Shown: piece by piece, positions 8,834 to 55,796 of the stretch
Layout: each line of letters begins with the position of its first letter
How positions within the stretch are numbered: the first letter of the stretch is position 1
From: Theobroma cacao
Lineage: Eukaryota > Streptophyta > Magnoliopsida > Malvales > Malvaceae
Assembly: GCF_000208745.1 (NCBI RefSeq)
Contig: NC_030858.1
Span: 29,977,234-30,041,233 of the forward strand
Length of the DNA stretch: 64,000 nucleotides
Direction of reading: 5' to 3'
The notes under the pieces: generated by a model
The model's database searches: none
Seen by the model: the letters and a program-made list of their open reading frames with translations, nothing else
What the model was told of the DNA's origin: nothing
Translations under genes and position numbers: made by a program

Positions 8834-10160
8834 ATGGCTTTCTTCTTCATGGCTTTCTTCAGTGCAAGAAATAACAAAAGCTTTTCCATGGCAGTCATGT
8901 TTCTACTTCTTGGAATTTTCATGTCTAGTTTGGAGTTCACAGGTTCGATTTTATCTATAATCTCACAATTTTAATTACGTTTTCTATCTGTATTTAGTTT
9001 GTAACACTTTTTTGTACTTAAGTAGTTGATTATAATAATTATGTATATGCGTTTCAAAAAATTAAATTTAACTTTTTTTACTAATTAAAAGAAAAATGTG
9101 ACACCCTTTAGAAAACTTTACAATTATTGTTGGAATATTGAAAGGTTTAGTAAGGTATAGAAGTTACCATGCATGTTTGAATATGTTTGAAATAGGGGCA
9201 AAATCCGTAGGCGTTTGCTATGGAAGAATCGGCGACAATTTGCCAAGTGAACAGGAAGTTTTGGAACTTTATAAAGCTAGTGGCATCGAAAAGATGAGAA
9301 TCTATGATCCAAATCAAGCAACTCTGCGAGCCCTCGGAATGTTTCCAGACATAGAACTCATCCTTGGTGTCCCTAACGGTGACCTTGAGGCCCTTGCTAC
9401 AGATGCCTCATCTGCAACCGATTGGGTCCAACGTAACATACTGCCCTACGCACCGGCGGCCAATATTCGTTACATCTCTGTTGGAAACGAAGTGAGACCG
9501 ATGGATCCGGCTGCACAATTCGTTCTCCCTGCAATGCAAAACATTTACAATGCTTTGGAGTCAGCAAACAACGCAATGGAAGTACTCCAAATTAAGGTTT
9601 CTACTTCGGTGGATGCAACTTTGTTAGGCAGTTCGTATCCTCCTTCAGCTGGCGCATTCAGTGACAGTGCAAGCTCATACATAATTCCCATCGTTCAATT
9701 CCTAGCAGACAAAGGGGCACCTTTACTCGCCAACATCTACCCTTATTTTAGCTACATTGGTGACCCTACAAGCATCGATCTTAACTACGCCTTATTTACA
9801 TCACCGGGAGTTGTGGTTCAGGACGGCGCATTCGGGTACCAAAACCTGTTTGATGCAATATTGGATGCCTTTTATTCTGCTATTGAGAAAGCTGGTTTCT
9901 CTAATATGGAAGTGGTTGTATCCGAGACTGGCTGGCCGTCGGATGGAGGCACCGCCGCAACTATTGAAAACGCAAGCACTTACTACCAGAATTTGATCAA
10001 TCATATTCAGAATGGAACCCCAAAGAGGCCTGGACAACCCACGCAAACTTACCTGTTTGCAATGTTTGATGAAAATCAAAAGGGTCCTGCTGAAACTGAG
10101 CGCCATTTTGGCCTCTTCTCCCCTGATAAGCAGCCCAAGTATCCGATAAGCTTCTTATGA
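8834..10160 (+). CDS. Glucan endo-1,3-beta-glucosidase (GH17, PR-2 type)
   Basis: Hydrolyses 1,3-beta-glucan (callose, fungal wall glucan) and is probably secreted. Exon 1 is 8834-8942 and exon 2 is 9196-10160, with a 253-bp GT-AG intron in phase 1. The spliced product is about 357 residues. Exon 1 encodes a hydrophobic signal peptide containing VMFLLLGIF. Exon 2 opens the mature enzyme at SVGVCYGR, the usual GH17 start. The acid/base glutamate is in ISVGNEV (E135) and the nucleophile in VVSETGWPS (E280). The C-terminal FDENQKGP and ERHFGLF motifs are present. There is no X8/CBM43 domain and no GPI or long vacuolar tail. Three in-frame ATGs (8834, 8849, 8888) could start translation, and I chose the first. 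The intron before the mature sequence is standard for this family. The reading frame is intact. Confidence 0.95.
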
Positions 10161-28269: not shown

Positions 28270-28274
28270 GTTAA
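28270..28274. repeat. Target-site duplication, left copy
   Basis: GTTAA next to the TG end of LTR1. It matches 46619-46623 exactly. Five bp is the length made by Ty3/gypsy and copia integrases. Confidence 0.9.
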
Positions 28275-31234
28275 TGTCACGACCCGGAACTCCCATCGAG
28301 CCCGTGACAACCGTCGCGACGTCCCGATAAGCACTCATTACCCCGAATGCCAATCGAAACCCCGCAAGGCTTAGCATCAACTTTCGCATCTCCCCGGTGA
28401 GTGACAGTTATTAAATCTCGCATTTCAAGAAATCATAAGTTGGTTCCAACTCAAAACAATAAAATATTATTTTCTAGCTCACTGGGGCATTTTCGTCAAT
28501 TTTTTTTTTTTAAATTTCGAAATCCGAAAAAATGTAATATGTAAGTGGAAACACGTAATTCATGATTTAAATTAAATTTTGAAGTCTAAAACATTCGTTT
28601 AAAGTAAAATTATAGCTATTTGAATATAATAAAAACATTAAATAAAATATTCTATTTTCTTAAAACACAATATTTTCAAAGTCTTCCTAAAATAACTTTT
28701 GTAGCGTAAGAGTAAAATAAATTTATTCATATAGTAATAAAGATAATTAAAGTATGAAATTTCGTTTACAGTGACACGTGGGCCCCCAACTAACCAAGAA
28801 GGTGTAGAGCTACGAACCCTTACTTCCTATGATGCAACTCCGAGATTAATTCTCGTCTTAATCAACTATCAACAAACTGTCCTGAGCCTGAAAAATGGAT
28901 AGGAAGAGGGGTGAGATTAAATAATCCCAGTGAGTAAACAATTACCATCAAAAGCATCTAAAGCCGAGTAGATGGAGACAATATAAAAACGTTATATCTC
29001 AATAATGTTCATAACACAAAATTCGTTTCAATCTATACCAAATAATTTCTTTTCATCAAAATTTCCCCGACTTATGAATTTTTTTAAACTTGGCCCCTGC
29101 CAATATCATTCTCGCGGGTACCTTCGTCAAGGTATCCCACTGAGACCGCCAAGGCTGTTCAATGACCCATACCCATAAACATGTTTTCACATCTGACACA
29201 CAGCCGTTCCTTGGCGTTGGCTGAGTCTCACTCTCACGTGGTGGCCCGAACGTGAGGTGCACTCAAATCATACCTCAGGAGATACTTCACCCAACATCTC
29301 CCCCCGGAGGTAAGTATATAATTGAGTTACCGTGCCCCTCTCATAGGCAGTCCACGGAAACCCCCACCACTGCAGTGACCGTTTAATATACCACCAGACC
29401 CATAAAAATTCCAGTAGCATAATATGGCGAATAAAATGTAATCCAGTCTACCGAGACCAATCCAAAATTGTTCATATATTTCATGCCAACCCCAAAAATT
29501 TAGCCATCATGCTACCATAGTGTCATAAGCCCCAATTTCAATAACATATAAAATCATAAATTTCAACACAGTCTCCATATACTCAATTTTCCCAAAACAA
29601 TATTTGATTTCAAAACCAGTATAAATCTCATTTTTATTAAAAAACATTTTAATTGGAAAACATAATATTTTATAATTTAAATTCACCATTCAATAAAAGC
29701 ATCAAACAAGTATAATTACTCTAGATATTTAAGACGATAAATTGTCCACTCACAGTTCTAGGAGTCGATGTACTCCTAATCCCAGTCTTCAAGCACAATT
29801 TTGGTACTTTTACCAGTGTAATTTGCTCACCACCTATCCACAATGTACAATACATAATTCACCACATCAATGCTTGACCATTATAAAATCAATTCAGGCT
29901 CGGTATATATGCATGATATGACATGCAACTTATCCGACTACCGCTTAAATGCGGTGCTGACCTAATTCGGCCTATTACCCGATTAAATTACTAACGCGTC
30001 CAATTTAATCTCAAATTAATTTTTTTCAGTTTCTATACCTCAATTGCACCCAAATTGACTTAATGTCCCTCGGTGTGGTGCAAATTATCAGTCCTGATAG
30101 CAAATTACGAAAATACCCCTAATGGGTAAAAATTCATATTTTTGCTCCGAAAATTTCCATTATTTTTCTAGACTCATAATTCATCATTATTCATCATAAT
30201 TCCTCAAATAAACATCAAGATCATCAGCCAATATTCCCCTAGAAAATTCAGCCAATAATGGTAATGGAGGAAAATAAATTCTTTTCTTGTTGTTTTGTTC
30301 CTAAATATGCTAAACTAACTTAAAACACTAACATAACTTAAAATCAAATTAATCTAACAAGTTTCTCTCTCCTAACCCATTTTTCCAGAATTGAATTCAT
30401 CCTCAAATCACATGATTCAACCATGGAAAATGATGGGAAATGCATGGGAAAGGTAAAGCACAAGTCAAAATCAAGAAATTTTACCTTTGGTCACTTGTTT
30501 CCTTGAATTTTCACCAATTTTTCCTTGAATTTCTCCCCCTAGGTTTTTGTTTTTCTTTTCCCCTTTGTTTTCTTGCTATGGCCGGCCATAATGAAGAGAA
30601 AATGGTGGTGTGGGCTGATTTTTATAGTTAAATAATATAATAATCTAAACTTGCCACATGTCACTACATTATTGGTCCATTTTTTAAATTCTTATCTTTT
30701 AAGCTTTAAATCTCCACCACACATTATTCCTTAAAATATCCATAACTTAGATAAAATTCTCAAACTTATCCAAAGTCTTGGTGAAGTAATTTTTGATATT
30801 TACACTTTTGCCCCCGTAAAAATCAAAAATTACATTTTTGCCCCAAAAACTGAAAAATTGCCCATAGACATATTTTTTATCCCTTATACTCATATCATTC
30901 CCCAATTTGTCAAATGTGATCTAAATTCTCTCAAAATCTCAAATTTTGTCCGCAGATGGAAAAATTACAATTTTACCCCTATATAGTGAAAATTTCAATT
31001 TGACTCCGAATTGATCCTCGAACTCCTAATTACCATTTTGAGTCATCCCTGAACTGTGAAACTCTTAATTTCACCTTAAAATTCCTATTTGAACTAGTTC
31101 GAGGCTTAATCGACTTAATGATACCATTAGGGGCAATATCGTCTTTTAACGATTTCTCGAACTTCCTAAATATACAAACATTCTATCGAGCATGTGAATG
31201 ATATTATAATTATTTTACAAAGCAGGGTTTGACA
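28275..31234 (-). repeat. LTR1 (outer, 3' LTR of the array)
   Basis: 2,960 bp with TGTCA/TGACA inverted ends. In its first 290 bp it differs from the other three LTRs at about nine places, including T or A for C or G at 28299, 28314, 28352, 28384 and 28402. The rest is almost identical to LTR2. On the - strand it has a TATAAAAA box at 30619-30626 with the palindrome ATGGCCGGCCAT about 40 bp downstream. Short open frames inside recur in all LTRs only because the LTRs are copies. Confidence 0.93.
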
Positions 31235-31248
31235 ACACTACCCCCCTT
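31235..31248 (-). promoter_or_regulatory. Polypurine tract, unit 1
   Basis: On the - strand AAGGGGGGTAGTGT lies directly against the TGTCA end of LTR1, the place where plus-strand DNA synthesis starts. The same site is at 36363-36376 and 41491-41504 in the other units. Confidence 0.8.
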
Positions 31249-31774
31249 AAAATAAAATTTTGTCCTCAAAATTTCACTTATCAACTCAAAGAAAAGGCGG
31301 GGTATTATCTTTTATTCGATGCTCAACTTCTCCTGTTATCTCCTTTATAGGGAATCTTAATTCACTAAAAATCATTCTTTATTTTAGTTAATCACAATAT
31401 CAACCCCACATATGTGTATATGCTTTATAATCCCATTTATGCATCCAAGATCTATCTTGATTTAATCATCGCATACGATGCAGTATCATAATTCCTCAGA
31501 GTCATCCCTTTGTCCTTAATCATCTTTCGTGCCTCTATATTGCTTTGTATCCTTCTTGTATTTCGACATCAATTTATTGCTTAAGATTTAAGTTCATTTG
31601 AACTTTGTATACCTCAAGTATTTTTGAGTTCTAATTTCCACAATATAGTAAGAAATTCTTACAACCATATTCCATATGAACTCATTTACTATATTATTCT
31701 TGAAACCTTTATTTACACGTCCATCACTTGGTATTTACATCCCCTGTCACTATGTTACACCTTCGTCTAACTTT
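31249..31774 (-). other. Non-coding remnant where pol would be, unit 1
   Basis: About 525 bp separate the gag stop from the polypurine tract. I see no protease, reverse transcriptase, RNase H or integrase motif. The same stretch is present in units 2 and 3 (36377-36902, 41505-42030), so the pol deletion predates the array. Confidence 0.75.
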
Positions 31775-33178
31775 TCACTCACTTTCTCCAGATCGGACTC
31801 GTGCTTCATCTTCCGTTACAGCGAAAACTCTTGTTGAAGAACGAGTCAATGGCCTCAAAGGTGGTTGTGCTGGGGTGTTGCTACCCATTTCAGATCGTAC
31901 AGTTACCCCCTGCCTCGGGTGTACTCCAGAGGAATCTCTCCTCTGCATATCCGTATGAGTTAGTGGGGATGGAGCAGCTACTGTAGCCCGTCCTAACTGT
32001 GGGCAGTCACTCCTAATGTGGCCCGGCTGGTCACAATGAAAGCATCTTATGCCCCAACACTCCCCAACATGATATCTCCCACATTTTTCGCATTTATTTA
32101 AACCTCCAAAACTCTTCTCGGAAGTACTACTCATCCCAGACCTGTTAAATCTCGGAGGTCTCTGCTGTAACTGTGAAAGTGGGGGTCGAGGAGATATCAC
32201 CGGAACAGAAACAGTACTCTCAGAAGCAAATGTGTCCTTACCTCTTTTGGGCAGTTGACTAGAGGATACATTCGGGTTTCTCCTCTTTGCAAACTCAGCT
32301 CGCATTCTCCGATTTTCATTCGTGAGTTTTTCGGCCCTTAAAGCCATCTGTACAACTTCTTTATGAGGCTCCCGGCCTGTCACAGTCATCCTCTCTCTGA
32401 TCTCGTTACGGAGCCCTTCTTCAAAATAACTAGCTTGATCTTGCTCAGACTTCACCAGGTCTGGCACATATGACATCAGCTCGTTAAAACGAGCCTCGTA
32501 CTCTTCTATGGTTAAATTCCCTTGTTGTAAACTTAGGAATTCTCTCTTCTTCTCTTTTTGATGAAAGTAGGTGTAGTATTGACCGTCGAATTCTTGTAGG
32601 AAGTCTATCCAAGTCAACGAAGTAATGGAACGTGATTTTACCGAGCTCCACCATGTACGAGCCCTCTTCTCTAGTAATCTTGTGGCCACCATTAACTTCA
32701 TATCATCATCCAATTTCATATCCACAAATGTCTCCGTTACCTGAGTAATCCAATCTTTAGCTGCGGTTGCATCCAAATCACCAACAAAAGAAGTGCAACC
32801 CAGCTGCCTAGCTTCCTTAAGCTTTTTGGAAATGGAGACATCTGGCACTGGTGGTGGAACAAGAGGTGGTGGTGGTGGCACTGGAGATACTGCTGGGGGA
32901 ACAGTATGAGGGACTCGACCAGCTTGAGCTTGGCCCATAATGACATTAAGAAAAGCTGCTAATGCCTGGACTGCCTCAAGAGACATGGCATGAACACCAG
33001 GAGTAGCAGTAGGTGGTGGAGGAGGTGGAGGAATCTCAGTAGGCTCAACAGCAGGTGCTGCTCGAAAAGTAGGTGCAGCAGACTCCCTTTCCACGGGATC
33101 TGGCTGACTAAGTCTAGCACGGCCTCTTCCCCTCCCTACTGACCTATAGAGAGGTGGACGCCCACGTCGAGGAGGCAT
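31775..33178 (-). CDS. Gag polyprotein, GAG-only element, copy 1
   Basis: 467 codons, intact. Order: a basic N-terminus with RG-rich stretch (residues 1-25), a proline-rich linker (about 45-115), a Retrotrans_gag capsid domain (about 120-290; landmarks KDWITQV, ARTWW, FLSLQQGNLTIEEYEARF), a basic region, and a C-terminal zinc knuckle C-x2-C-x4-H-x4-C at 379-392, preceded by CEKC and HVGEC. It stops just after TRVFAVTEDEA, a motif that in full-length Ty3/gypsy polyproteins leads into the protease. The capsid and nucleocapsid halves are thus complete and everything after is gone. Known role of Gag: particle assembly and RNA packaging. Transcription would start in the LTR to its right. This unit differs from units 2 and 3 at two bases just downstream of the stop (about 31739 and 31749). 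Confidence 0.93.
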   Translation of the reverse strand: MPPRRGRPPLYRSVGRGRGRARLSQPDPVERESAAPTFRAAPAVEPTEIPPPPPPPTATPGVHAMSLEAVQALAAFLNVIMGQAQAGRVPHTVPPAVSPVPPPPPLVPPPVPDVSISKKLKEARQLGCTSFVGDLDATAAKDWITQVTETFVDMKLDDDMKLMVATRLLEKRARTWWSSVKSRSITSLTWIDFLQEFDGQYYTYFHQKEKKREFLSLQQGNLTIEEYEARFNELMSYVPDLVKSEQDQASYFEEGLRNEIRERMTVTGREPHKEVVQMALRAEKLTNENRRMRAEFAKRRNPNVSSSQLPKRGKDTFASESTVSVPVISPRPPLSQLQQRPPRFNRSGMSSTSEKSFGGLNKCEKCGRYHVGECWGIRCFHCDQPGHIRSDCPQLGRATVAAPSPLTHTDMQRRDSSGVHPRQGVTVRSEMGSNTPAQPPLRPLTRSSTRVFAVTEDEARVRSGESE

Positions 33179-33384
33179 GGTACTCTACAATAAGAAATGG
33201 AATAGACTTAGATGACTTTAAATTCTATATGCAACTAACTCGATATAACCTAACTTAACTTGACTTACTTAACTTAACTTAACTTGGGCCACGCAGTGTC
33301 AGTGTGGATTTCTTAAAACAACTTTAAAATCAAAAACTTTGAAATCCAAAGCTTTAAAATCAAAATCTTTGATCTTTAAACCAT

Positions 33385-33396
33385 GCTCTGATACCA
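33385..33396 (-). promoter_or_regulatory. Primer-binding site, unit 1
   Basis: On the - strand TGGTATCAGAGC, complementary to the 3' end of initiator tRNA-Met, 7 nt from the end of LTR2. It proves that the element reads on the - strand. Repeated at 38513-38524 and 43641-43652. Confidence 0.9.
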
Positions 33397-33403
33397 ATCT
33401 AAT

Positions 33404-36362
33404 TGTCACGACCCGGAACTCCCATCGGGCCCGTGACAACCGCCGCGACGTCCCGATAAGCACTCATTACCCCGAATGCCGATCGAAACCCCGCAAGGCT
33501 TAGCATCAACTTCCGCATCTCCCCGGTGAGCGACAGTTATTAAATCTCGCATTTCAAGAAATCATAAGTTGTTTCCAACTCAAAACAATAAAAATATTAT
33601 TTTCTAGCTCACTGGGGCATTTTCGTCATTTTTTTTTTGAAATTTCGAAATCCGAAAAAATGTAATATGTAAGTGGAAACACATATTTCATGATTTAAAT
33701 TAAATTTTGAAGTCTAAAACATTCGTTTAAAGTAAAATTATAGCTATTTGAATATAATAAAAACATTAAATAAAATATTCTATTTTCTTAAAACACAATA
33801 TTTTCAAAGTCTTCCTAAAATAACTTTTGTAGCGTAAGAGTAAAATAAATTTATTCATATAGTAATAAAGATAATTAAAGTATGAAATTTCGTTTACAGT
33901 GACACGTGGGCCCCCAACTAACCAAGAAGGTGTAGAGCTACGAACCCTTACTTCCTATGATGCAACTCCGAGATTAATTCTCGTCTTAATCAACTATCAA
34001 CAAACTGTCCTGAGCCTGAAAAATGGATAGGAAGAGGGGTGAGATTAAATAATCCCAGTGAGTAAACAATTACCATCAAAAGCATCTAAAGCCGAGTAGA
34101 TGGAGACAATATAAAAACGTTATATCTCAATAATGTTCATAACACAAAATTCGTTTCAATCTATACCAAATAATTTCTTTTCATCAAAATTTCCCCGACT
34201 TATGAATTTTTTTAAACTTGGCCCCTGCCAATATCATTCTCGCGGGTACCTTCGTCAAGGTATCCCACTGAGACCGCCAAGGCTGTTCAATGACCCATAC
34301 CCATAAACATGTTTTCACATCTGACACACAGCCGTTCCTTGGCGTTGGCTGAGTCTCACTCTCACGTGGTGGCCCGAACGTGAGGTGCACTCAAATCATA
34401 CCTCAGGAGATACTTCACCCAACATCTCCCCCCGGAGGTAAGTATATAATTGAGTTACCGTGCCCCTCTCATAGGCAGTCCACGGAAACCCCCACCACTG
34501 CAGTGACCGTTTAATATACCACCAGACCCATAAAAATTCCAGTAGCATAATATGGCGAATAAAATGTAATCCAGTCTACCGAGACCAATCCAAAATTGTT
34601 CATATATTTCATGCCAACCCCAAAAATTTAGCCATCATGCTACCATAGTGTCATAAGCCCCAATTTCAATAACATATAAAATCATAAATTTCAACACAGT
34701 CTCCATATACTCAATTTTCCCAAAACAATATTTGATTTCAAAACCAGTATAAATCTCATTTTTATTAAAAAACATTTTAATTGGAAAACATAATATTTTA
34801 TAATTTAAATTCACCATTCAATAAAAGCATCAAACAAGTATAATTACTCTAGATATTTAAGACGATAAATTGTCCACTCACAGTTCTAGGAGTCGATGTA
34901 CTCCTAATCCCAGTCTTCAAGCACAATTTTGGTACTTTTACCAGTGTAATTTGCTCACCACCTATCCACAATGTACAATACATAATTCACCACATCAATG
35001 CTTGACCATTATAAAATCAATTCAGGCTCGGTATATATGCATGATATGACATGCAACTTATCCGACTACCGCTTAAATGCGGTGCTGACCTAATTCGGCC
35101 TATTACCCGATTAAATTACTAACGCGTCCAATTTAATCTCAAATTAATTTTTTTCAGTTTCTATACCTCAATTGCACCCAAATTGACTTAATGTCCCTCG
35201 GTGTGGTGCAAATTATCAGTCCTGATAGCAAATTACGAAAATACCCCTAATGGGTAAAAATTCATATTTTTGCTCCGAAAATTTCCATTATTTTTCTAGA
35301 CTCATAATTCATCATTATTCATCATAATTCCTCAAATAAACATCAAGATCATCAGCCAATATTCCCCTAGAAAATTCAGCCAATAATGGTAATGGAGGAA
35401 AATAAATTCTTTTCTTGTTGTTTTGTTCCTAAATATGCTAAACTAACTTAAAACACTAACATAACTTAAAATCAAATTAATCTAACAAGTTTCTCTCTCC
35501 TAACCCATTTTTCCAGAATTGAATTCATCCTCAAATCACATGATTCAACCATGGAAAATGATGGGAAATGCATGGGAAAGGTAAAGCACAAGTCAAAATC
35601 AAGAAATTTTACCTTTGGTCACTTGTTTCCTTGAATTTTCACCAATTTTTCCTTGAATTTCTCCCCCTAGGTTTTTGTTTTTCTTTTCCCCTTTGTTTTC
35701 TTGCTATGGCCGGCCATAATGAAGAGAAAATGGTGGTGTGGGCTGATTTTTATAGTTAAATAATATAATAATCTAAACTTGCCACATGTCACTACATTAT
35801 TGGTCCATTTTTTAAATTCTTATCTTTTAAGCTTTAAATCTCCACCACACATTATTCCTTAAAATATCCATAACTTAGATAAAATTCTCAAACTTATCCA
35901 AAGTCTTGGTGAAGTAATTTTTGATATTTACACTTTTGCCCCCGTAAAAATCAAAAATTACATTTTTGCCCCAAAAACTGAAAAATTGCCCATAGACATA
36001 TTTTTTATCCCTTATACTCATATCATTCCCCAATTTGTCAAATGTGATCTAAATTCTCTCAAAATCTCAAATTTTGTCCGCAGATGGAAAAATTACAATT
36101 TTACCCCTATATAGTGAAAATTTCAATTTGACTCCGAATTGATCCTCGAACTCCTAATTACCATTTTGAGTCATCCCTGAACTGTGAAACTCTTAATTTC
36201 ACCTTAAAATTCCTATTTGAACTAGTTCGAGGCTTAATCGACTTAATGATACCATTAGGGGCAATATCGTCTTTTAACGATTTCTCGAACTTCCTAAATA
36301 TACAAACATTCTATCGAGCATGTGAATGATATTATAATTATTTTACAAAGCAGGGTTTGACA
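33404..36362 (-). repeat. LTR2 (inner, mosaic)
   Basis: 2,959 bp. Its left about 290 bp matches LTR3 and LTR4 (CGGG, CCGCCG, GCCGATC, GAGCGAC states). Further right it matches LTR1 (CTCGGTGTGG and CAGTCCTGATAG near 35200). This is the chimera expected if the right LTR of one copy recombined with the left LTR of a sister copy. Confidence 0.92.
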
Positions 36363-36902
36363 ACACTACCCCCCTTAAAATAAAATTTTGTCCTCAAAAT
36401 TTCACTTATCAACTCAAAGAAAAGGCGGGGTATTATCTTTTATTCGATGCTCAACTTCTCCTGTTATCTCCTTTATAGGGAATCTTAATTCACTAAAAAT
36501 CATTCTTTATTTTAGTTAATCACAATATCAACCCCACATATGTGTATATGCTTTATAATCCCATTTATGCATCCAAGATCTATCTTGATTTAATCATCGC
36601 ATACGATGCAGTATCATAATTCCTCAGAGTCATCCCTTTGTCCTTAATCATCTTTCGTGCCTCTATATTGCTTTGTATCCTTCTTGTATTTCGACATCAA
36701 TTTATTGCTTAAGATTTAAGTTCATTTGAACTTTGTATACCTCAAGTATTTTTGAGTTCTAATTTCCACAATATAGTAAGAAATTCTTACAACCATATTC
36801 CATATGAACTCATTTACTATATTATTCTTGAAACCTTTATTTACACGTCCATCACTTGGTATTTACATCCCCTATCACTATTTTACACCTTCGTCTAACT
36901 TT

Positions 36903-38306
36903 TCACTCACTTTCTCCAGATCGGACTCGTGCTTCATCTTCCGTTACAGCGAAAACTCTTGTTGAAGAACGAGTCAATGGCCTCAAAGGTGGTTGTGCTG
37001 GGGTGTTGCTACCCATTTCAGATCGTACAGTTACCCCCTGCCTCGGGTGTACTCCAGAGGAATCTCTCCTCTGCATATCCGTATGAGTTAGTGGGGATGG
37101 AGCAGCTACTGTAGCCCGTCCTAACTGTGGGCAGTCACTCCTAATGTGGCCCGGCTGGTCACAATGAAAGCATCTTATGCCCCAACACTCCCCAACATGA
37201 TATCTCCCACATTTTTCGCATTTATTTAAACCTCCAAAACTCTTCTCGGAAGTACTACTCATCCCAGACCTGTTAAATCTCGGAGGTCTCTGCTGTAACT
37301 GTGAAAGTGGGGGTCGAGGAGATATCACCGGAACAGAAACAGTACTCTCAGAAGCAAATGTGTCCTTACCTCTTTTGGGCAGTTGACTAGAGGATACATT
37401 CGGGTTTCTCCTCTTTGCAAACTCAGCTCGCATTCTCCGATTTTCATTCGTGAGTTTTTCGGCCCTTAAAGCCATCTGTACAACTTCTTTATGAGGCTCC
37501 CGGCCTGTCACAGTCATCCTCTCTCTGATCTCGTTACGGAGCCCTTCTTCAAAATAACTAGCTTGATCTTGCTCAGACTTCACCAGGTCTGGCACATATG
37601 ACATCAGCTCGTTAAAACGAGCCTCGTACTCTTCTATGGTTAAATTCCCTTGTTGTAAACTTAGGAATTCTCTCTTCTTCTCTTTTTGATGAAAGTAGGT
37701 GTAGTATTGACCGTCGAATTCTTGTAGGAAGTCTATCCAAGTCAACGAAGTAATGGAACGTGATTTTACCGAGCTCCACCATGTACGAGCCCTCTTCTCT
37801 AGTAATCTTGTGGCCACCATTAACTTCATATCATCATCCAATTTCATATCCACAAATGTCTCCGTTACCTGAGTAATCCAATCTTTAGCTGCGGTTGCAT
37901 CCAAATCACCAACAAAAGAAGTGCAACCCAGCTGCCTAGCTTCCTTAAGCTTTTTGGAAATGGAGACATCTGGCACTGGTGGTGGAACAAGAGGTGGTGG
38001 TGGTGGCACTGGAGATACTGCTGGGGGAACAGTATGAGGGACTCGACCAGCTTGAGCTTGGCCCATAATGACATTAAGAAAAGCTGCTAATGCCTGGACT
38101 GCCTCAAGAGACATGGCATGAACACCAGGAGTAGCAGTAGGTGGTGGAGGAGGTGGAGGAATCTCAGTAGGCTCAACAGCAGGTGCTGCTCGAAAAGTAG
38201 GTGCAGCAGACTCCCTTTCCACGGGATCTGGCTGACTAAGTCTAGCACGGCCTCTTCCCCTCCCTACTGACCTATAGAGAGGTGGACGCCCACGTCGAGG
38301 AGGCAT
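36903..38306 (-). CDS. Gag polyprotein, GAG-only element, copy 2
   Basis: The predicted protein is identical, over all 467 residues, to copies 1 and 3. It is bounded by LTR2 and LTR3. With copy 3 it shares CTATCACTATTTTAC in the segment just downstream of its stop, where copy 1 has CTGTCACTATGTTAC. Units 2 and 3 are therefore the closest pair, duplicated last. The primer-binding site is at 38513-38524 and the polypurine tract at 36363-36376. Confidence 0.93.
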   Translation of the reverse strand: MPPRRGRPPLYRSVGRGRGRARLSQPDPVERESAAPTFRAAPAVEPTEIPPPPPPPTATPGVHAMSLEAVQALAAFLNVIMGQAQAGRVPHTVPPAVSPVPPPPPLVPPPVPDVSISKKLKEARQLGCTSFVGDLDATAAKDWITQVTETFVDMKLDDDMKLMVATRLLEKRARTWWSSVKSRSITSLTWIDFLQEFDGQYYTYFHQKEKKREFLSLQQGNLTIEEYEARFNELMSYVPDLVKSEQDQASYFEEGLRNEIRERMTVTGREPHKEVVQMALRAEKLTNENRRMRAEFAKRRNPNVSSSQLPKRGKDTFASESTVSVPVISPRPPLSQLQQRPPRFNRSGMSSTSEKSFGGLNKCEKCGRYHVGECWGIRCFHCDQPGHIRSDCPQLGRATVAAPSPLTHTDMQRRDSSGVHPRQGVTVRSEMGSNTPAQPPLRPLTRSSTRVFAVTEDEARVRSGESE

Positions 38307-38531
38307 GGTACTCTACAATAAGAAATGGAATAGACTTAGATGACTTTAAATTCTATATGCAACTAACTCGATATAACCTAACTTAACTTGACTTACTTAA
38401 CTTAACTTAACTTGGGCCACGCAGTGTCAGTGTGGATTTCTTAAAACAACTTTAAAATCAAAAACTTTGAAATCCAAAGCTTTAAAATCAAAATCTTTGA
38501 TCTTTAAACCATGCTCTGATACCAATCTAAT

Positions 38532-41490
38532 TGTCACGACCCGGAACTCCCATCGGGCCCGTGACAACCGCCGCGACGTCCCGATAAGCACTCATTACCC
38601 CGAATGCCGATCGAAACCCCGCAAGGCTTAGCATCAACTTCCGCATCTCCCCGGTGAGCGACAGTTATTAAATCTCGCATTTCAAGAAATCATAAGTTGT
38701 TTCCAACTCAAAACAATAAAAATATTATTTTCTAGCTCACTGGGGCATTTTCGTCATTTTTTTTTTGAAATTTCGAAATCCGAAAAAATGTAATATGTAA
38801 GTGGAAACACATATTTCATGATTTAAATTAAATTTTGAAGTCTAAAACATTCGTTTAAAGTAAAATTATAGCTATTTGAATATAATAAAAACATTAAATA
38901 AAATATTCTATTTTCTTAAAACACAATATTTTCAAAGTCTTCCTAAAATAACTTTTGTAGCGTAAGAGTAAAATAAATTTATTCATATAGTAATAAAGAT
39001 AATTAAAGTATGAAATTTCGTTTACAGTGACACGTGGGCCCCCAACTAACCAAGAAGGTGTAGAGCTACGAACCCTTACTTCCTATGATGCAACTCCGAG
39101 ATTAATTCTCGTCTTAATCAACTATCAACAAACTGTCCTGAGCCTGAAAAATGGATAGGAAGAGGGGTGAGATTAAATAATCCCAGTGAGTAAACAATTA
39201 CCATCAAAAGCATCTAAAGCCGAGTAGATGGAGACAATATAAAAACGTTATATCTCAATAATGTTCATAACACAAAATTCGTTTCAATCTATACCAAATA
39301 ATTTCTTTTCATCAAAATTTCCCCGACTTATGAATTTTTTTAAACTTGGCCCCTGCCAATATCATTCTCGCGGGTACCTTCGTCAAGGTATCCCACTGAG
39401 ACCGCCAAGGCTGTTCAATGACCCATACCCATAAACATGTTTTCACATCTGACACACAGCCGTTCCTTGGCGTTGGCTGAGTCTCACTCTCACGTGGTGG
39501 CCCGAACGTGAGGTGCACTCAAATCATACCTCAGGAGATACTTCACCCAACATCTCCCCCCGGAGGTAAGTATATAATTGAGTTACCGTGCCCCTCTCAT
39601 AGGCAGTCCACGGAAACCCCCACCACTGCAGTGACCGTTTAATATACCACCAGACCCATAAAAATTCCAGTAGCATAATATGGCGAATAAAATGTAATCC
39701 AGTCTACCGAGACCAATCCAAAATTGTTCATATATTTCATGCCAACCCCAAAAATTTAGCCATCATGCTACCATAGTGTCATAAGCCCCAATTTCAATAA
39801 CATATAAAATCATAAATTTCAACACAGTCTCCATATACTCAATTTTCCCAAAACAATATTTGATTTCAAAACCAGTATAAATCTCATTTTTATTAAAAAA
39901 CATTTTAATTGGAAAACATAATATTTTATAATTTAAATTCACCATTCAATAAAAGCATCAAACAAGTATAATTACTCTAGATATTTAAGACGATAAATTG
40001 TCCACTCACAGTTCTAGGAGTCGATGTACTCCTAATCCCAGTCTTCAAGCACAATTTTGGTACTTTTACCAGTGTAATTTGCTCACCACCTATCCACAAT
40101 GTACAATACATAATTCACCACATCAATGCTTGACCATTATAAAATCAATTCAGGCTCGGTATATATGCATGATATGACATGCAACTTATCCGACTACCGC
40201 TTAAATGCGGTGCTGACCTAATTCGGCCTATTACCCGATTAAATTACTAACGCGTCCAATTTAATCTCAAATTAATTTTTTTCAGTTTCTATACCTCAAT
40301 TGCACCCAAATTGACTTAATGTCCCTCAGTGTGGTGCAAATTATCAGTCCCGATAGCAAATTACGAAAATACCCCTAATGGGTAAAAATTCATATTTTTG
40401 CTCCAAAAATTTCCATTATTTTTCTAGACTCATAATTCATCATTATTCATCATAATTCCTCAAATAAACATCAAGATCATCAGCCAATATTCCCCTAGAA
40501 AATTCAGCCAATAATGGTAATGGAGGAAAATAAATTCTTTTCTTGTTGTTTTGTTCCTAAATATGCTAAACTAACTTAAAACACTAACATAACTTAAAAT
40601 CAAATTAATCTAACAAGTTTCTCTCTCCTAACCCATTTTTCCAGAATTGAATTCATCCTCAAATCACATGATTCAACCATGGAAAATGATGGGAAATGCA
40701 TGGGAAAGGTAAAGCACAAGTCAAAATCAAGAAATTTTACCTTTGGTCACTTGTTTCCTTGAATTTTCACCAATTTTTCCTTGAATTTCTCCCCCTAGGT
40801 TTTTGTTTTTCTTTTCCCCTTTGTTTTCTTGCTATGGCCGGCCATAATGAAGAGAAAATGGTGGTGTGGGCTGATTTTTATAGTTAAATAATATAATAAT
40901 CTAAACTTGCCACATGTCACTACATTATTGGTCCATTTTTTAAATTCTTATCTTTTAAGCTTTAAATCTCCACCACACATTATTCCTTAAAATATCCATA
41001 ACTTAGATAAAATTCTCAAACTTATCCAAAGTCTTGGTGAAGTAATTTTTTATATTTACACTTTTGCCCCCGTAAAAATCAAAAATTACATTTTTGCCCC
41101 AAAAACTGAAAAATTGCCCATAGACATATTTTTTATCCCTTATACTCATATCATTCCCCAATTTGTCAAATGTGATCTAAATTCTCTCAAAATCTCAAAT
41201 TTTGTCCGCAGATGGAAAAATTACAATTTTACCCCTATATAGTGAAAATTTCAATTTGACTCCGAATTGATCCTCGAACTCCTAATTACCATTTTGAGTC
41301 ATCCCTGAACTGTGAAACTCTTAATTTCACCTTAAAATTCCTATTTGAACTAGTTCGAGGCTTAATCGACTTAATGATACCATTAGGGGCAATATCGTCT
41401 TTTAACGATTTCTCGAACTTCCTAAATATACAAACATTCTATCGAGCATGTGAATGACATTATAATTATTTTACAAAGCAGGGTTTGACA
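38532..41490 (-). repeat. LTR3 (inner, mosaic)
   Basis: 2,959 bp. The left part and the sites near 40327-40352 (CTCAGTGTGG, CAGTCCCGATAG) match LTR4. The right end (GTTCGAGGC, AGGGGCAAT, near 41355-41395) matches LTR1 and LTR2. Private changes include CTCCAAAAATTT (about 40405), TTTTTTATATTTAC (about 41048) and GAATGACATT (about 41453). The breakpoint differs from that of LTR2. Confidence 0.92.
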
Positions 41491-42030
41491 ACACTACCCC
41501 CCTTAAAATAAAATTTTGTCCTCAAAATTTCACTTATCAACTCAAAGAAAAGGCGGGGTATTATCTTTTATTCGATGCTCAACTTCTCCTGTTATCTCCT
41601 TTATAGGGAATCTTAATTCACTAAAAATCATTCTTTATTTTAGTTAATCACAATATCAACCCCACATATGTGTATATGCTTTATAATCCCATTTATGCAT
41701 CCAAGATCTATCTTGATTTAATCATCGCATACGATGCAGTATCATAATTCCTCAGAGTCATCCCTTTGTCCTTAATCATCTTTCGTGCCTCTATATTGCT
41801 TTGTATCCTTCTTGTATTTCGACATCAATTTATTGCTTAAGATTTAAGTTCATTTGAACTTTGTATACCTCAAGTATTTTTGAGTTCTAATTTCCACAAT
41901 ATAGTAAGAAATTCTTACAACCATATTCCATATGAACTCATTTACTATATTATTCTTGAAACCTTTATTTACACGTCCATCACTTGGTATTTACATCCCC
42001 TATCACTATTTTACACCTTCGTCTAACTTT

Positions 42031-43434
42031 TCACTCACTTTCTCCAGATCGGACTCGTGCTTCATCTTCCGTTACAGCGAAAACTCTTGTTGAAGAACGA
42101 GTCAATGGCCTCAAAGGTGGTTGTGCTGGGGTGTTGCTACCCATTTCAGATCGTACAGTTACCCCCTGCCTCGGGTGTACTCCAGAGGAATCTCTCCTCT
42201 GCATATCCGTATGAGTTAGTGGGGATGGAGCAGCTACTGTAGCCCGTCCTAACTGTGGGCAGTCACTCCTAATGTGGCCCGGCTGGTCACAATGAAAGCA
42301 TCTTATGCCCCAACACTCCCCAACATGATATCTCCCACATTTTTCGCATTTATTTAAACCTCCAAAACTCTTCTCGGAAGTACTACTCATCCCAGACCTG
42401 TTAAATCTCGGAGGTCTCTGCTGTAACTGTGAAAGTGGGGGTCGAGGAGATATCACCGGAACAGAAACAGTACTCTCAGAAGCAAATGTGTCCTTACCTC
42501 TTTTGGGCAGTTGACTAGAGGATACATTCGGGTTTCTCCTCTTTGCAAACTCAGCTCGCATTCTCCGATTTTCATTCGTGAGTTTTTCGGCCCTTAAAGC
42601 CATCTGTACAACTTCTTTATGAGGCTCCCGGCCTGTCACAGTCATCCTCTCTCTGATCTCGTTACGGAGCCCTTCTTCAAAATAACTAGCTTGATCTTGC
42701 TCAGACTTCACCAGGTCTGGCACATATGACATCAGCTCGTTAAAACGAGCCTCGTACTCTTCTATGGTTAAATTCCCTTGTTGTAAACTTAGGAATTCTC
42801 TCTTCTTCTCTTTTTGATGAAAGTAGGTGTAGTATTGACCGTCGAATTCTTGTAGGAAGTCTATCCAAGTCAACGAAGTAATGGAACGTGATTTTACCGA
42901 GCTCCACCATGTACGAGCCCTCTTCTCTAGTAATCTTGTGGCCACCATTAACTTCATATCATCATCCAATTTCATATCCACAAATGTCTCCGTTACCTGA
43001 GTAATCCAATCTTTAGCTGCGGTTGCATCCAAATCACCAACAAAAGAAGTGCAACCCAGCTGCCTAGCTTCCTTAAGCTTTTTGGAAATGGAGACATCTG
43101 GCACTGGTGGTGGAACAAGAGGTGGTGGTGGTGGCACTGGAGATACTGCTGGGGGAACAGTATGAGGGACTCGACCAGCTTGAGCTTGGCCCATAATGAC
43201 ATTAAGAAAAGCTGCTAATGCCTGGACTGCCTCAAGAGACATGGCATGAACACCAGGAGTAGCAGTAGGTGGTGGAGGAGGTGGAGGAATCTCAGTAGGC
43301 TCAACAGCAGGTGCTGCTCGAAAAGTAGGTGCAGCAGACTCCCTTTCCACGGGATCTGGCTGACTAAGTCTAGCACGGCCTCTTCCCCTCCCTACTGACC
43401 TATAGAGAGGTGGACGCCCACGTCGAGGAGGCAT
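42031..43434 (-). CDS. Gag polyprotein, GAG-only element, copy 3
   Basis: Identical protein to the other two copies. This unit lies next to LTR4, the true 5' LTR of the array, so a transcript from the outermost promoter would meet this gag first. Polyadenylation in LTR3 would then give a normal single-unit RNA, while read-through would give longer RNAs. The leader between gag and the primer-binding site contains tandem AACTTA repeats at 43505-43540, also present in the other units. Confidence 0.93.
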   Translation of the reverse strand: MPPRRGRPPLYRSVGRGRGRARLSQPDPVERESAAPTFRAAPAVEPTEIPPPPPPPTATPGVHAMSLEAVQALAAFLNVIMGQAQAGRVPHTVPPAVSPVPPPPPLVPPPVPDVSISKKLKEARQLGCTSFVGDLDATAAKDWITQVTETFVDMKLDDDMKLMVATRLLEKRARTWWSSVKSRSITSLTWIDFLQEFDGQYYTYFHQKEKKREFLSLQQGNLTIEEYEARFNELMSYVPDLVKSEQDQASYFEEGLRNEIRERMTVTGREPHKEVVQMALRAEKLTNENRRMRAEFAKRRNPNVSSSQLPKRGKDTFASESTVSVPVISPRPPLSQLQQRPPRFNRSGMSSTSEKSFGGLNKCEKCGRYHVGECWGIRCFHCDQPGHIRSDCPQLGRATVAAPSPLTHTDMQRRDSSGVHPRQGVTVRSEMGSNTPAQPPLRPLTRSSTRVFAVTEDEARVRSGESE

Positions 43435-43659
43435 GGTACTCTACAATAAGAAATGGAATAGACTTAGATGACTTTAAATTCTATATGCAACTAACTCGAT
43501 ATAACCTAACTTAACTTGACTTACTTAACTTAACTTAACTTGGGCCACGCAGTGTCAGTGTGGATTTCTTAAAACAACTTTAAAATCAAAAACTTTGAAA
43601 TCCAAAGCTTTAAAATCAAAATCTTTGATCTTTAAACCATGCTCTGATACCAATCTAAT

Positions 43660-46618
43660 TGTCACGACCCGGAACTCCCATCGGGCCCGTGACAACCGCC
43701 GCGACGTCCCGATAAGCACTCATTACCCCGAATGCCGATCGAAACCCCGCAAGGCTTAGCATCAACTTCCGCATCTCCCCGGTGAGCGACAGTTATTAAA
43801 TCTCGCATTTCAAGAAATCATAAGTTGTTTCCAACTCAAAACAATAAAAATATTATTTTCTAGCTCACTGGGGCATTTTCGTCATTTTTTTTTTGAAATT
43901 TCGAAATCCGAAAAAATGTAATATGTAAGTGGAAACACATATTTCATGATTTAAATTAAATTTTGAAGTCTAAAACATTCGTTTAAAGTAAAATTATAGC
44001 TATTTGAATATAATAAAAACATTAAATAAAATATTCTATTTTCTTAAAACACAATATTTTCAAAGTCTTCCTAAAATAACTTTTGTAGCGTAAGAGTAAA
44101 ATAAATTTATTCATATAGTAATAAAGATAATTAAAGTATGAAATTTCGTTTACAGTGACACGTGGGCCCCCAACTAACCAAGAAGGTGTAGAGCTACGAA
44201 CCCTTACTTCCTATGATGCAACTCCGAGATTAATTCTCGTCTTAATCAACTATCAACAAACTGTCCTGAGCCTGAAAAATGGATAGGAAGAGGGGTGAGA
44301 TTAAATAATCCCAGTGAGTAAACAATTACCATCAAAAGCATCTAAAGCCGAGTAGATGGAGACAATATAAAAACGTTATATCTCAATAATGTTCATAACA
44401 CAAAATTCGTTTCAATCTATACCAAATAATTTCTTTTCATCAAAATTTCCCCGACTTATGAATTTTTTTAAACTTGGCCCCTGCCAATATCATTCTCGCG
44501 GGTACCTTCGTCAAGGTATCCCACTGAGACCGCCAAGGCTGTTCAATGACCCATACCCATAAACATGTTTTCACATCTGACACACAGCCGTTCCTTGGCG
44601 TTGGCTGAGTCTCACTCTCACGTGGTGGCCCGAACGTGAGGTGCACTCAAATCATACCTCAGGAGATACTTCACCCAACATCTCCCCCCGGAGGTAAGTA
44701 TATAATTGAGTTACCGTGCCCCTCTCATAGGCAGTCCACGGAAACCCCCACCACTGCAGTGACCGTTTAATATACCACCAGACCCATAAAAATTCCAGTA
44801 GCATAATATGGCGAATAAAATGTAATCCAGTCTACCGAGACCAATCCAAAATTGTTCATATATTTCATGCCAACCCCAAAAATTTAGCCATCATGCTACC
44901 ATAGTGTCATAAGCCCCAATTTCAATAACATATAAAATCATAAATTTCAACACAGTCTCCATATACTCAATTTTCCCAAAACAATATTTGATTTCAAAAC
45001 CAGTATAAATCTCATTTTTATTAAAAAACATTTTAATTGGAAAACATAATATTTTATAATTTAAATTCACCATTCAATAAAAGCATCAAACAAGTATAAT
45101 TACTCTAGATATTTAAGACGATAAATTGTCCACTCACAGTTCTAGGAGTCGATGTACTCCTAATCCCAGTCTTCAAGCACAATTTTTGTACTTTTACCAG
45201 TGTAATTTGCTCACCACCTATCCACAATGTACAATACATAATTCACCACATCAATGCTTGACCATTATAAAATCAATTCAGGCTCGGTATATATGCATGA
45301 TATGACATGCAACTTATCCGACTACCGCTTAAATGCGGTGCTGACCTAATTCGGCCTATTACCCGATTAAATTACTAACGCGTCCAATTTAATCTCAAAT
45401 TAATTTTTTTCAGTTTCTATACCTCAATTGCACCCAAATTGACTTAATGTCCCTCAGTGTGGTGCAAATTATCAGTCCCGATAGCAAATTACGAAAATAC
45501 CCCTAATGGGTAAAAATTCGTATTTTTGCTCCGAAAATTTCCATTATTTTTCTAGACTCATAATTCATCATTATTCATCATAATTCCTCAAATAAACATC
45601 AAGATCATCAGCCAATATTCCCCTAGAAAATTCGGCCAATAATGGTAATGGAGGAAAATAAATTCTTTTCTTGTTGTTTTGTTCCTAAATATGCTAAACT
45701 AACTTAAAACACTAACATAACTTAAAATCAAATTAATCTAACAAGTTTCTCTCTCCTAACCCATTTTTCCAGAATTGAATTCATCCTCAAATCACATGAT
45801 TCAACCATGGAAAATGATGGGAAATGCATGGGAAAGGTAAAGCACAAGTCAAAATCAAGAAATTTTACCTTTGGTCACTTGTTTCCTTGAATTTTCACCA
45901 ATTTTTCCTTGAATTTCTCCCCCTAGGTTTTTGTTTTTCTTTTCCCCTTTGTTTTCTTGCTATGGCCGGCCATAATGAAGAGAAAATGGTGGTGTGGGCT
46001 GATTTTTATAGTTAAATAATATAATAATCTAAACTTGCCACATGTCACTACATTATTGGTCCATTTTTTAAATTCTTATCTTTTAAGCTTTAAATCTCCA
46101 CCACACATTATTCCTTAAAATATCCATAACTTAGATAAAATTCTCAAACTTATCCAAAGTCTTGGTGAAGTAATTTTTGATATTTACACTTTTGCCCCCG
46201 TAAAAATCAAAAATTACATTTTTGCCCCAAAAACTGAAAAATTGCCCATAGACATATTTTTTATCCCTTATACTCATATCATTCCCCAATTTGTCAAATG
46301 TGATCTAAATTCTCTCAAAATCTCAAATTTTGTCCGCAGATGGAAAAATTACAATTTTACCCCTATATAGTGAAAATTTCAATTTGACTCCGAATTGATC
46401 CTCGAACTCCTAATTACCATTTTGAGTCATCCCTGAACTGTGAAACTCTTAATTTCACCTTAAAATTCCTATTTGAACTAGTTCAAGGCTTAATCGACTT
46501 AATGATACCATTAGGGGTAATATCGTCTTTTAACGATTTCTCGAACTTCCTAAATATACAAACATTCTATCGAGCATGTGAATGATATTATAATTATTTT
46601 ACAAAGCAGGGTTTGACA
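43660..46618 (-). repeat. LTR4 (outer, 5' LTR of the array)
   Basis: 2,959 bp. Private states include TTTTTGTAC (about 45184), ATTCGTATTTTT (about 45519), TTCGGCCAATAAT (about 45632), GTTCAAGGC (about 46484) and AGGGGTAAT (about 46514). The right end abuts the second GTTAA target copy. Confidence 0.93.
46003..46010 (-). promoter_or_regulatory. TATA box of the 5' LTR promoter
   Basis: TATAAAAA on the - strand in LTR4, about 600 bp from the outer end of the LTR. The palindrome ATGGCCGGCCAT follows about 40 bp downstream, in the expected 5' UTR. The same pair occurs in every LTR at the 5,128-bp spacing. Promoter activity is inferred. Confidence 0.55.
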
Positions 46619-46623
46619 GTTAA
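46619..46623. repeat. Target-site duplication, right copy
   Basis: GTTAA directly after the CA end of LTR4, identical to 28270-28274. Confidence 0.9.
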
Positions 46624-53112: not shown

Positions 53113-54147
53113 ACCGAACCAAGCAGGTAATGGCACTTACATTTTATCAATGGATTAGAACTTGATTCTCTATTAATACGAAATTAACATGCTTCATCCT
53201 TAGATAACTTAAAATTTTTCCACTTTTTGTTGATATCTTCCATCTTGTTATGTCAGCCTTTAGTAAACTAATCTCTAACCCTAATCCACACCAGCCAAAA
53301 CCCAAAAATCAAATTTAATAGCCACCCTTATTTTACCCTAAAACAAGACGTAGGCTCTTATAAACCTTAGGTTTAGAAAGACATTAATCTTTAAGTCTAA
53401 GTCAATTTTCTATTCATGTTATATTAATAAAGAATATGATCTTTCATACCATACACATATATTTGACTTTATCAAAACGCAAAACAACAATGTTAAGTAA
53501 ATTTCACTCTCAAATTCCACATCAACAATTCAAAAATGAAACTAAAAACATTTTTAAAAAAGTATAAATATTTAATTTAATGAGAAATGTAAGCATCTCA
53601 AAGAGTCGGACTCAAATTTGAGATGGTGCCACAATTAGTGCGGCTAAAAAGTCATGTGCCACGATAAAGTCAAGACTAGCAAAAAGTAGTTTTGTTTTTT
53701 TAATTAAAGTAAGGTCAATAAAGTAAGTGGGGGGTATGTGATGTCTCTTTCCCATTCAATTTCTTTCTACTACGTTGATCCTCTACAAGGCCATTTTCTT
53801 TTGGGCTCTTTTCTTTACAATTTAATTTCCTGTCAAACTCCATATCTCCACCCACAATACAAAACCCTCCTCAATAAAAACATTAAAAAGTAATAATTTT
53901 AATTTTTTTTAATTTTGCAAGACAAAAAATTAAGAGTCGAATTTAAGTTTTTAAACAGAAATATATATACATTGATTATTGAGTCAAAATTCAAATAAAT
54001 TTTTATTATTTTGTTACATTCAATCAAACTTTTGTATTTTTATTTGGATTAAATTGGCTCTTTTAACTAATTATTTGATTGATTGTCGTTAATCAAAAAC
54101 GTTACTTATCACTTATTATTTTTATACCACATGGTACTAACATATTA
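53113..54147. other. Intergenic DNA
   Basis: No gene recognised. The first 200 bp may be LINE 5' UTR (AACCCTAATCC). The rest is AT-rich. Confidence 0.4.
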
Positions 54148-54300
54148 TAATAAATGATGATGGACAAGATAACATGACTACATGATATTTTTCACCCTTC
54201 ATGTTAGCATCACATGATGTCATAATAAACGATGATGGACAAGATAACATGATCACGCGATATTTTTCATCTTCCATGTTAGCATCAAATGAGTATAAAA
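54148..54300. repeat. 75-bp tandem duplication
   Basis: Units at about 54148-54222 and 54223-54300. They share GATGATGGACAAGATAACATGA, a GATATTTTTCA block and ATGTTAGCATCA. A short open frame passes through, but its peptide repeats only because the DNA does. Confidence 0.75.
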
Positions 54301-55275: not shown

Positions 55276-55796
55276 NNNNNNNNNNNNNNNNNNNNNNNNN
55301 NNNNNNNNNNNNNNNNNNNNNNNNNNNNNNNNNNNNNNNNNNNNNNNNNNNNNNNNNNNNNNNNNNNNNNNNNNNNNNNNNNNNNNNNNNNNNNNNNNNN
55401 NNNNNNNNNNNNNNNNNNNNNNNNNNNNNNNNNNNNNNNNNNNNNNNNNNNNNNNNNNNNNNNNNNNNNNNNNNNNNNNNNNNNNNNNNNNNNNNNNNNN
55501 NNNNNNNNNNNNNNNNNNNNNNNNNNNNNNNNNNNNNNNNNNNNNNNNNNNNNNNNNNNNNNNNNNNNNNNNNNNNNNNNNNNNNNNNNNNNNNNNNNNN
55601 NNNNNNNNNNNNNNNNNNNNNNNNNNNNNNNNNNNNNNNNNNNNNNNNNNNNNNNNNNNNNNNNNNNNNNNNNNNNNNNNNNNNNNNNNNNNNNNNNNNN
55701 NNNNNNNNNNNNNNNNNNNNNNNNNNNNNNNNNNNNNNNNNNNNNNNNNNNNNNNNNNNNNNNNNNNNNNNNNNNNNNNNNNNNNNNNNNNNNNNN
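55276..55796. other. Assembly gap (521 N)
   Basis: Run of undetermined bases ending in a TA microsatellite. Any open frame across it is meaningless. Confidence 0.99.

What the first reader, a model, noticed from the sequence alone, without database searches (positions are those of the whole stretch)
28275..46618. Triplicated GAG-only retrotransposon: four LTRs, three intact gag genes, one target duplication
Seen: exact 5,128-bp periodicity, TG/CA LTR ends, primer-binding sites and polypurine tracts in every unit, GTTAA only at the outer borders, and no pol anywhere. Known: GAG-only LTR elements (TR-GAG) are a described non-autonomous class in plants, usually found as single copies. A tandem series of complete units with three identical Gag frames is unusual. 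It could raise Gag dosage or produce multi-unit RNAs. This is the best candidate for something new in the window.
Basis: partly seen in the sequence, partly recalled or inferred. Interest (0 to 1): 0.9.

Follow-up and report, generated by a model that had tools for sequence, protein, structure and literature searches.

The report
Gag-only retrotransposon array, assembly doubtful
In the cacao genome, a retrotransposon that carries only its shell-protein gene is printed three times head to tail, but its sister copies suggest that the assembly scrambled the insides of these insertions, so the triplication is unproven, and tandem retrotransposons are in any case already known in plants.

Summary
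The described sequence is there: four LTRs of 2,959-2,960 bp, three 2,169-bp internal regions, three identical 467-aa Gag frames (minus strand), PBS and PPT in each unit, GTTAA only outside, no pol found. The window is chromosome 9 of Theobroma cacao Criollo V2: 454/Newbler contigs, gaps closed with corrected long reads averaging 2.6 kb, unlikely to resolve an 18.3-kb near-identical array. Alone, the LTR variants look like unequal LTR-LTR crossover. But six single-unit sister insertions show the same pattern without any array: locus-specific variants sit at the outer LTR ends, insides are nearly uniform (left:right departures 98:6 in the first kb, 6:385 in the last). In two of them the LTRs of one insertion carry different U3 types, which one reverse-transcription event cannot make; three older copies look normal. 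The insides were therefore probably filled from other copies, and the unit number is not established. For a real array: one internal base is shared by all three units and by none of seven other copies. If real, it is a gag-only element in a tandem LTR array, a structure reported as common in plants (PMC11899658).

The parts
28270..28274 (.). left target-site duplication GTTAA
   Evidence: sequence; matches 46619-46623, absent at inner junctions
28275..31234 (-). LTR1 (3' LTR of the whole array in element orientation); its first 285 columns hold all 12 variants that set it apart
31235..33403 (-). internal region 1 (two private bases at internal positions 512 and 520)
31241..31248 (-). polypurine tract, unit 1 (AAGGGGGG on the minus strand, 6 bases from the LTR)
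   Evidence: role inferred
31775..33178 (-). gag ORF 1, 467 aa
33385..33396 (-). primer-binding site, unit 1 (TGGTATCAGAGC; match to initiator tRNA-Met is recalled)
33404..36362 (-). LTR2 (shared)
36363..38531 (-). internal region 2
36903..38306 (-). gag ORF 2, identical 467 aa
38532..41490 (-). LTR3 (shared; three variants not in LTR1, 2 or 4)
41491..43659 (-). internal region 3
42031..43434 (-). gag ORF 3, identical 467 aa
43660..46618 (-). LTR4 (5' LTR of the whole array in element orientation)
46619..46623 (.). right target-site duplication GTTAA

Best explanation
At this site one gag-only Ty3/gypsy element inserted and duplicated GTTAA (shown: outer borders). It would move with reverse transcriptase and integrase from related autonomous elements while its own Gag packages its RNA (inferred). 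The printed interior, including the number of units, is most likely a product of the assembly: short reads collapsed the near-identical copies of this family, and scaffolding and gap filling rebuilt the inside of each insertion from pooled copies. An LTR-internal-LTR element forms a loop in an assembly graph, and going round the loop more than once prints a tandem array with one outer target duplication and inner LTRs that look like crossover products. Scrambling is strongly indicated at sister loci; that it also made the extra units here is inferred.
For: In six single-unit sister insertions the left LTR departs from LTR2 where its partner does not mainly in the first 1,000 columns (98:6) and the right LTR in the last part (6:385); left-end bias in 6 of 6, right-end bias in 5 of 6. 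The array's outer pair does the same: 12:0, 0:5, 0:2. L043 and L045 have LTRs of two U3 types within one insertion, though both have matching 5-bp target duplications. Three older copies have LTR pairs that share their subfamily differences and differ along the whole length. LTR3 alleles at 1874 and 2927 and the LTR4 haplotype occur at loci on other chromosomes. Assembly made from 454 contigs, corrected long reads averaging 2,573 bp and gap closers (PMC5603072).
Against: The units are not exact copies: LTR2 and LTR3 differ at five sites and internal region 1 has two private bases. Internal position 48 is C in all three units and T in all seven other copies compared. LTR3 has a base at 2520 found in none of the other 16 LTRs. 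The six sister loci were printed as single units, so the process did not regularly add units. No unrelated long-LTR family was tested; three Copia elements had LTRs too short to tell. No reads were available.
Confidence: 0.55

Rival explanations
1. A real tandem array. One element inserted, then unequal recombination between its LTRs on sister chromatids or homologues added units twice, at different points in the LTR (LTR3 at columns 1823-1862 first, LTR2 at 286-1529 later). The unit sequences may still have been evened out by the assembly.
For: Inner LTRs read as LTR4 on the left and LTR1 on the right, the product expected from LTR-LTR crossover in one insertion; one outer target duplication; array-specific base at internal position 48 in all three units; such arrays are common in plants (PMC11899658); a related, older locus on contig 8 has units 93.6% alike.
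Against: The same left-right pattern occurs at six insertions that are not tandem. The 12 LTR1 variants all fall in 285 of 2,961 columns (chance 6e-13 if uniform), which simple crossover does not predict even with the two- to threefold hot spot seen in older copies. LTR3 alleles at 1874 and 2927 occur at other loci.
Confidence: 0.35
2. A multi-unit cDNA, from template switching or a transcript of a one-LTR circle, inserted as a whole.
For: One outer target duplication and uniform units; such complex insertions are described in Triticeae, rice and maize (PMC1950507).
Against: The outer LTRs should be the most similar pair; LTR1-LTR4 is the most different of the six pairs (18 events).
Confidence: 0.04
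3. In vivo homogenisation: the transcribed parts of all seven insertions are kept alike by conversion from cDNA, while the 5' LTR U3 and the 3' LTR U5, which the RNA lacks, drift.
For: With all copies oriented to the element, the left (3') LTR departs mainly in the first kb and the right (5') LTR in the other two thirds, roughly U5 and U3 (R borders not mapped).
Against: The edges of the variable zones differ between loci; three older copies show no such effect; the assembly method accounts for the pattern without new biology.
Confidence: 0.04

Closest known systems
TR-GAG elements (terminal-repeat retrotransposons with GAG domain)
   Same: LTRs, PBS, PPT and one gag ORF, no pol; definition seen in passages of PMC6022998 and PMC8704663.
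   Different: Printed as three units sharing LTRs; the TR-GAG shown to move in Arabidopsis is a Copia element, this one has Ty3-type Gag.
Tandem LTR retrotransposons (IDENTAM set; PMC11899658)
   Same: Alternating LTRs and internal regions, starting and ending with an LTR, 5-bp target duplication outside, Gypsy type.
   Different: The 28 clear rice cases encode conserved domains, here only gag; the rice case examined in detail was checked with spanning long reads, this one is not.
Tandem Cassandra TRIM arrays (PMC7215508, abstract and outline seen)
   Same: Arrays of LTR and internal domain of a non-autonomous element.
   Different: TRIMs are small and encode no Gag.
Template-switch complex elements (Sabot and Schulman 2007, PMC1950507, part 1 of 2 read)
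   Same: Shared inner LTR with flanking target duplications.
   Different: There the outer LTRs are highly similar; here the outer LTRs are the most different pair.

Membership tests
TR-GAG | two LTRs with TG...CA ends and a target-site duplication | tested here: met
   outer LTRs 28275-31234 and 43660-46618, GTTAA both sides; six sister insertions also have 5-bp duplications
TR-GAG | intact gag ORF | tested here: met
   467 aa, three Pfam matches over their cut-offs
TR-GAG | no reverse transcriptase, RNase H or integrase | tested here: met
   84 Gag-related proteins hit only gag and LTR pieces; pol fragments unlike these relatives were not sought
TR-GAG | mobilised by an autonomous partner | not testable with these tools
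   candidate relatives with protease and RT exist; no mobility data
Tandem LTR retrotransposon | alternating LTR and internal regions, LTR at both ends | tested here: met
   in the printed sequence
Tandem LTR retrotransposon | structure confirmed by reads spanning it | not testable with these tools
   no reads held; assembly method unfavourable
Tandem LTR retrotransposon | LTR variants assignable to this locus, not to a mix of loci | tested here: not met
   LTR3 and LTR4 alleles are shared with loci on other chromosomes, and sister loci show the same pattern
Template-switch complex insertion | outer LTRs the most similar pair | tested here: not met
   LTR1-LTR4 18 events, the largest of the six pairs

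The most novel reading that the evidence does not exclude
The outer-end pattern at all seven loci is real biology: the parts of each copy represented in the RNA are kept nearly identical by cDNA-templated conversion, while the 5' LTR U3 and the 3' LTR U5, which the RNA lacks, drift freely; the tandem array would be a side product of the same recombination between cDNA and genome.
Probability: 0.04. Interest if true: 0.75.

Novelty: new member of a known kind. Interest (0 to 1): 0.17.

Why it matters
If the array is real, it is one more tandem LTR retrotransposon, gag-only and with a readable crossover record, which bears on a question the 2025 survey left open (recombination or complex insertion; PMC11899658). 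If it is not, it warns that LTR pairs, insertion dates and 'identical' ORFs of young long-LTR families in this assembly, and perhaps in others of its generation, can be assembly chimeras. The outer-end test used here (which LTR of a pair departs, and where) needs no reads and could flag such loci elsewhere.

Tried and rejected
Chance repeat or nested insertion: rejected by identity and the lack of inner target duplications. Two fused insertions: disfavoured by the matching outer target duplication. Multi-unit cDNA: disfavoured because the outer LTRs are the most different pair. Unequal crossover was my first reading after and is set down in the notebook; I lowered it when non-tandem sister loci showed the same pattern. 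A mutational hot spot at the U5 end is real (first 250-column bin about 2.3 to 3.5 times the mean of the other bins in L049-L051) but does not explain why mainly the left LTR shows it. Independent-family control: three Copia elements had LTRs of 351, 363 and 293 bp, too short to test the effect; no unrelated long-LTR family was examined. One search compared L022-L041 (20 loci) and found no pair above 96% identity over more than 1.5 kb, so no second young subfamily to test. Rfam (gathering threshold) found nothing in the window. Literature searches listed no paper.
Full report
What is there. The window holds LTR-INT-LTR-INT-LTR-INT-LTR at 28275-46618, minus strand. Four LTRs of 2,960, 2,959, 2,959 and 2,959 bp and three internal regions of 2,169 bp lie at a period of 5,129, 5,128 and 5,128 bp, with identities of 99.4-99.8% between shifted copies. 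GTTAA flanks the outer borders only. Each internal region has TGGTATCAGAGC after the upstream LTR and a G-rich tract before the downstream LTR (the match to initiator tRNA-Met is recalled). Each has one 467-aa frame, identical in all three; the first was scanned and matches Retrotrans_gag, Ty3_capsid and the zinc knuckle above their cut-offs. Comparing 84 Gag-related proteins with the window (11 with an RT domain and 3 with an integrase core, 12 in all, by the precomputed Pfam column) gave 436 matches; 347 lie within gag and the other 89 are gag matches that overhang it or pieces at or across the LTRs, which other gene models include.

Where it is. The best Gag match is from Theobroma cacao, and four matches bearing LOC names lie on contigs of 41,236,440, 26,303,135, 21,614,486 and 37,323,695 bases. 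These are the lengths of contigs 2, 6, 7 and 1 of the held genome. The window's contig 9 has 38,630,433 bases. I take the window to be chromosome 9 of the Criollo B97-61/B2 V2 assembly (PMC5603072; I saw the abstract, passages and part 1 of 4 of its main section). That assembly started from 454/Newbler contigs, was scaffolded with mate pairs and BAC ends, and was gap-closed with corrected PacBio reads of mean length 2,573 bp and with mate pairs. Its authors state that such assemblies collapse identical repeats or produce misassembled regions.

What the LTR variants seemed to say. Twenty-two alignment columns vary among the four LTRs. Twelve, all in the first 285, set LTR1 apart. Five (1530, 1863, 1977, 2828, 2861) set LTR4 apart, two (1799, 1822) separate LTR1+LTR2 from LTR3+LTR4, and three (1876, 2522, 2929) set LTR3 apart. 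(These columns run up to 2 ahead of the LTR2 positions used.) The inner LTRs thus read as LTR4 on the left and LTR1 on the right. This is what unequal crossing over between the two LTRs of one insertion leaves. By the criteria of Sabot and Schulman (PMC1950507, part 1 of 2 read) it fits neither two fused insertions (no flanking target duplication expected) nor template switching (outer LTRs should be alike).

Why I do not rest on that. The internal region was searched in the own genome: 51 matches, a lower bound since 40 of 3,315 candidates were scored. Besides the three array units, six copies are 99.7-99.95% identical to internal region 2, on contigs 10, 5, 10, 5, 2 and 2. All six are single-unit insertions with 5-bp target duplications GTTTT, TAATT, ATTTT, TTTGC, ACTAA and ACCCA. 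Ordinary ageing would spread the differences between the two LTRs of an insertion along the LTR and let them fall on either one. That is not seen. In the twelve sister LTRs, 568 columns depart from the majority of the 16 LTRs compared (the four array LTRs and these twelve; L048l, whose partner is cut off, left out); 493 lie within 1 kb of the outer border and 18 within 1 kb of the inner border. More than half of the 568 come from the two loci L043 and L045. Scored per insertion against LTR2 as yardstick, left against right departures are 98:6 in the first 1,000 columns, 3:44 in the next 1,000 and 6:385 in the rest. The left-end bias holds in 6 of 6 insertions, the right-end bias in 5 of 6 (L047 has 2:1). 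Without L043 and L045 the counts are 54:3, 2:25 and 6:41. The array's outer pair does the same, 12:0, 0:5 and 0:2, whether LTR2, L042l or L044l is the yardstick.

Two loci cannot be right as they stand. In L043 and L045 the right LTR differs from LTR2 by 28-31, 107-108 and 27-32 events in three successive 250-column bins near the U3 end, while the left LTR of the same insertion differs by 0-3 in those bins. One reverse-transcription event gives both LTRs the same U3 (established knowledge; the identity of new LTRs is also stated). As a control, three older copies (L049, L050, L051) have LTR pairs that share most of their subfamily differences and differ from each other along the length, with an excess in the first 250 columns. 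These control LTRs were bounded by BLAST matches and not checked for target duplications; L049 contains 356 N and the right LTR of L051 is 394 bp shorter. So the interior of the near-identical copies appears to have been filled from other copies during assembly. The haplotype at LTR positions 1528, 1797, 1820, 1861, 1874 and 1975 makes the same point: it differs between the two LTRs in 5 of 6 sister insertions, and LTR4's version is found in L045r and L046r, on contigs 5 and 2.

What speaks for a real array. The units are not exact copies: LTR2 and LTR3 differ at five sites, and internal region 1 has two private bases eight apart. Internal position 48 is C in all three units but T in the six sister copies and in L048. 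LTR3's base at 2520 is found in none of the other 16 LTRs tabulated. The six sister loci were not expanded by whatever filled them. Tandem arrays of this build are common in plants: 28 clear cases in one rice genome, 10 of them with perfect target duplications; 266 potential cases in a rice pangenome; 11 each in Arabidopsis and almond; 130 in cotton (PMC11899658; I read the abstract, part 1 of 6 of the text, the results and the discussion). That paper leaves open whether recombination or complex insertion makes them. A related older locus, contig 8 at about 8.587-8.597 Mb, has a 4.16-kb stretch repeated 5.09 kb apart at 93.6% identity. Units so diverged are hard to explain as a loop artefact, though I found neither a full left LTR nor looked for a target duplication there.

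Judgement. One insertion of a gag-only element at GTTAA is well supported. Three units are not established. I put an assembly-made interior at 0.55, a real tandem by unequal LTR-LTR recombination at 0.35, and the remaining readings at about 0.10 together. Both kinds are known: TR-GAG elements (definition seen in passages of PMC6022998; movement of one in Arabidopsis ddm1 seen in passages of PMC8704663; the founding paper is recalled, not seen) and tandem LTR retrotransposons. I saw no paper describing this family in cacao in the listings or in the passages of PMC3726317; none of these searches used a name for this family, since it has none that I know.

How it would work if intact. Gag would form particles, and the RNA would be primed at the PBS and copied by reverse transcriptase from autonomous relatives (inferred). 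Gag-protease-RT gene models with related Gags exist (P0015, 64% identity over 86% of the query; P0022, 84% over 41%, its RT match just under the cut-off). Two further gene models with protease or pol domains begin with LTR pieces close to this element's (P0066 93% over 41 aa, P0076 94% over 33 aa). One related Gag model, P0007, carries a Tf2-type SH3 domain and a below-cut-off chromodomain match, which hints at a chromovirus lineage. The frame here ends ...ARVRSGESE, where P0015 reads ARVRPGAVTG and on into its protease, so loss of pol just after gag is a fair inference. Expression, dosage and multi-unit RNA were not tested.

Noticed in passing
L043 and L045 (G000 C5:25731217-25740185 and C5:6613585-6622555): Insertions with matching target duplications whose two LTRs carry different U3 types; probable assembly chimeras.
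   Followed up: yes
L052/L053 (G000 C8, about 8.587-8.597 Mb): Older related element with a 4.16-kb LTR+internal stretch repeated 5.09 kb apart at 93.6% identity, a possible genuine old tandem.
   Followed up: partly
LTR columns 1-250 of this family: In three older copies the U5 end differs between the two LTRs about 2.3 to 3.5 times as often as the other bins; cytosine methylation of its GC-rich start is a guess.
   Followed up: no
window 54142-54291: A 75-bp direct duplication, copies 85% alike.
   Followed up: no
window 14826 and 55276-55796: A single N and a 521-base N gap, the only unread bases in the window.
   Followed up: no
P0055 (Dioscorea) and P0043 (Reevesia) against the window Gag: A yam Gag is 48% identical over 64% of the query, a Reevesia Gag 43% over 78%; similar scores in a monocot and in what I recall to be a plant of the cacao family.
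   Followed up: no
window 9183-10160 and 57921-63570: Plant gene ORFs on either side of the array; the first looks like a beta-1,3-glucanase (recalled resemblance, no search; ORFs).
   Followed up: no
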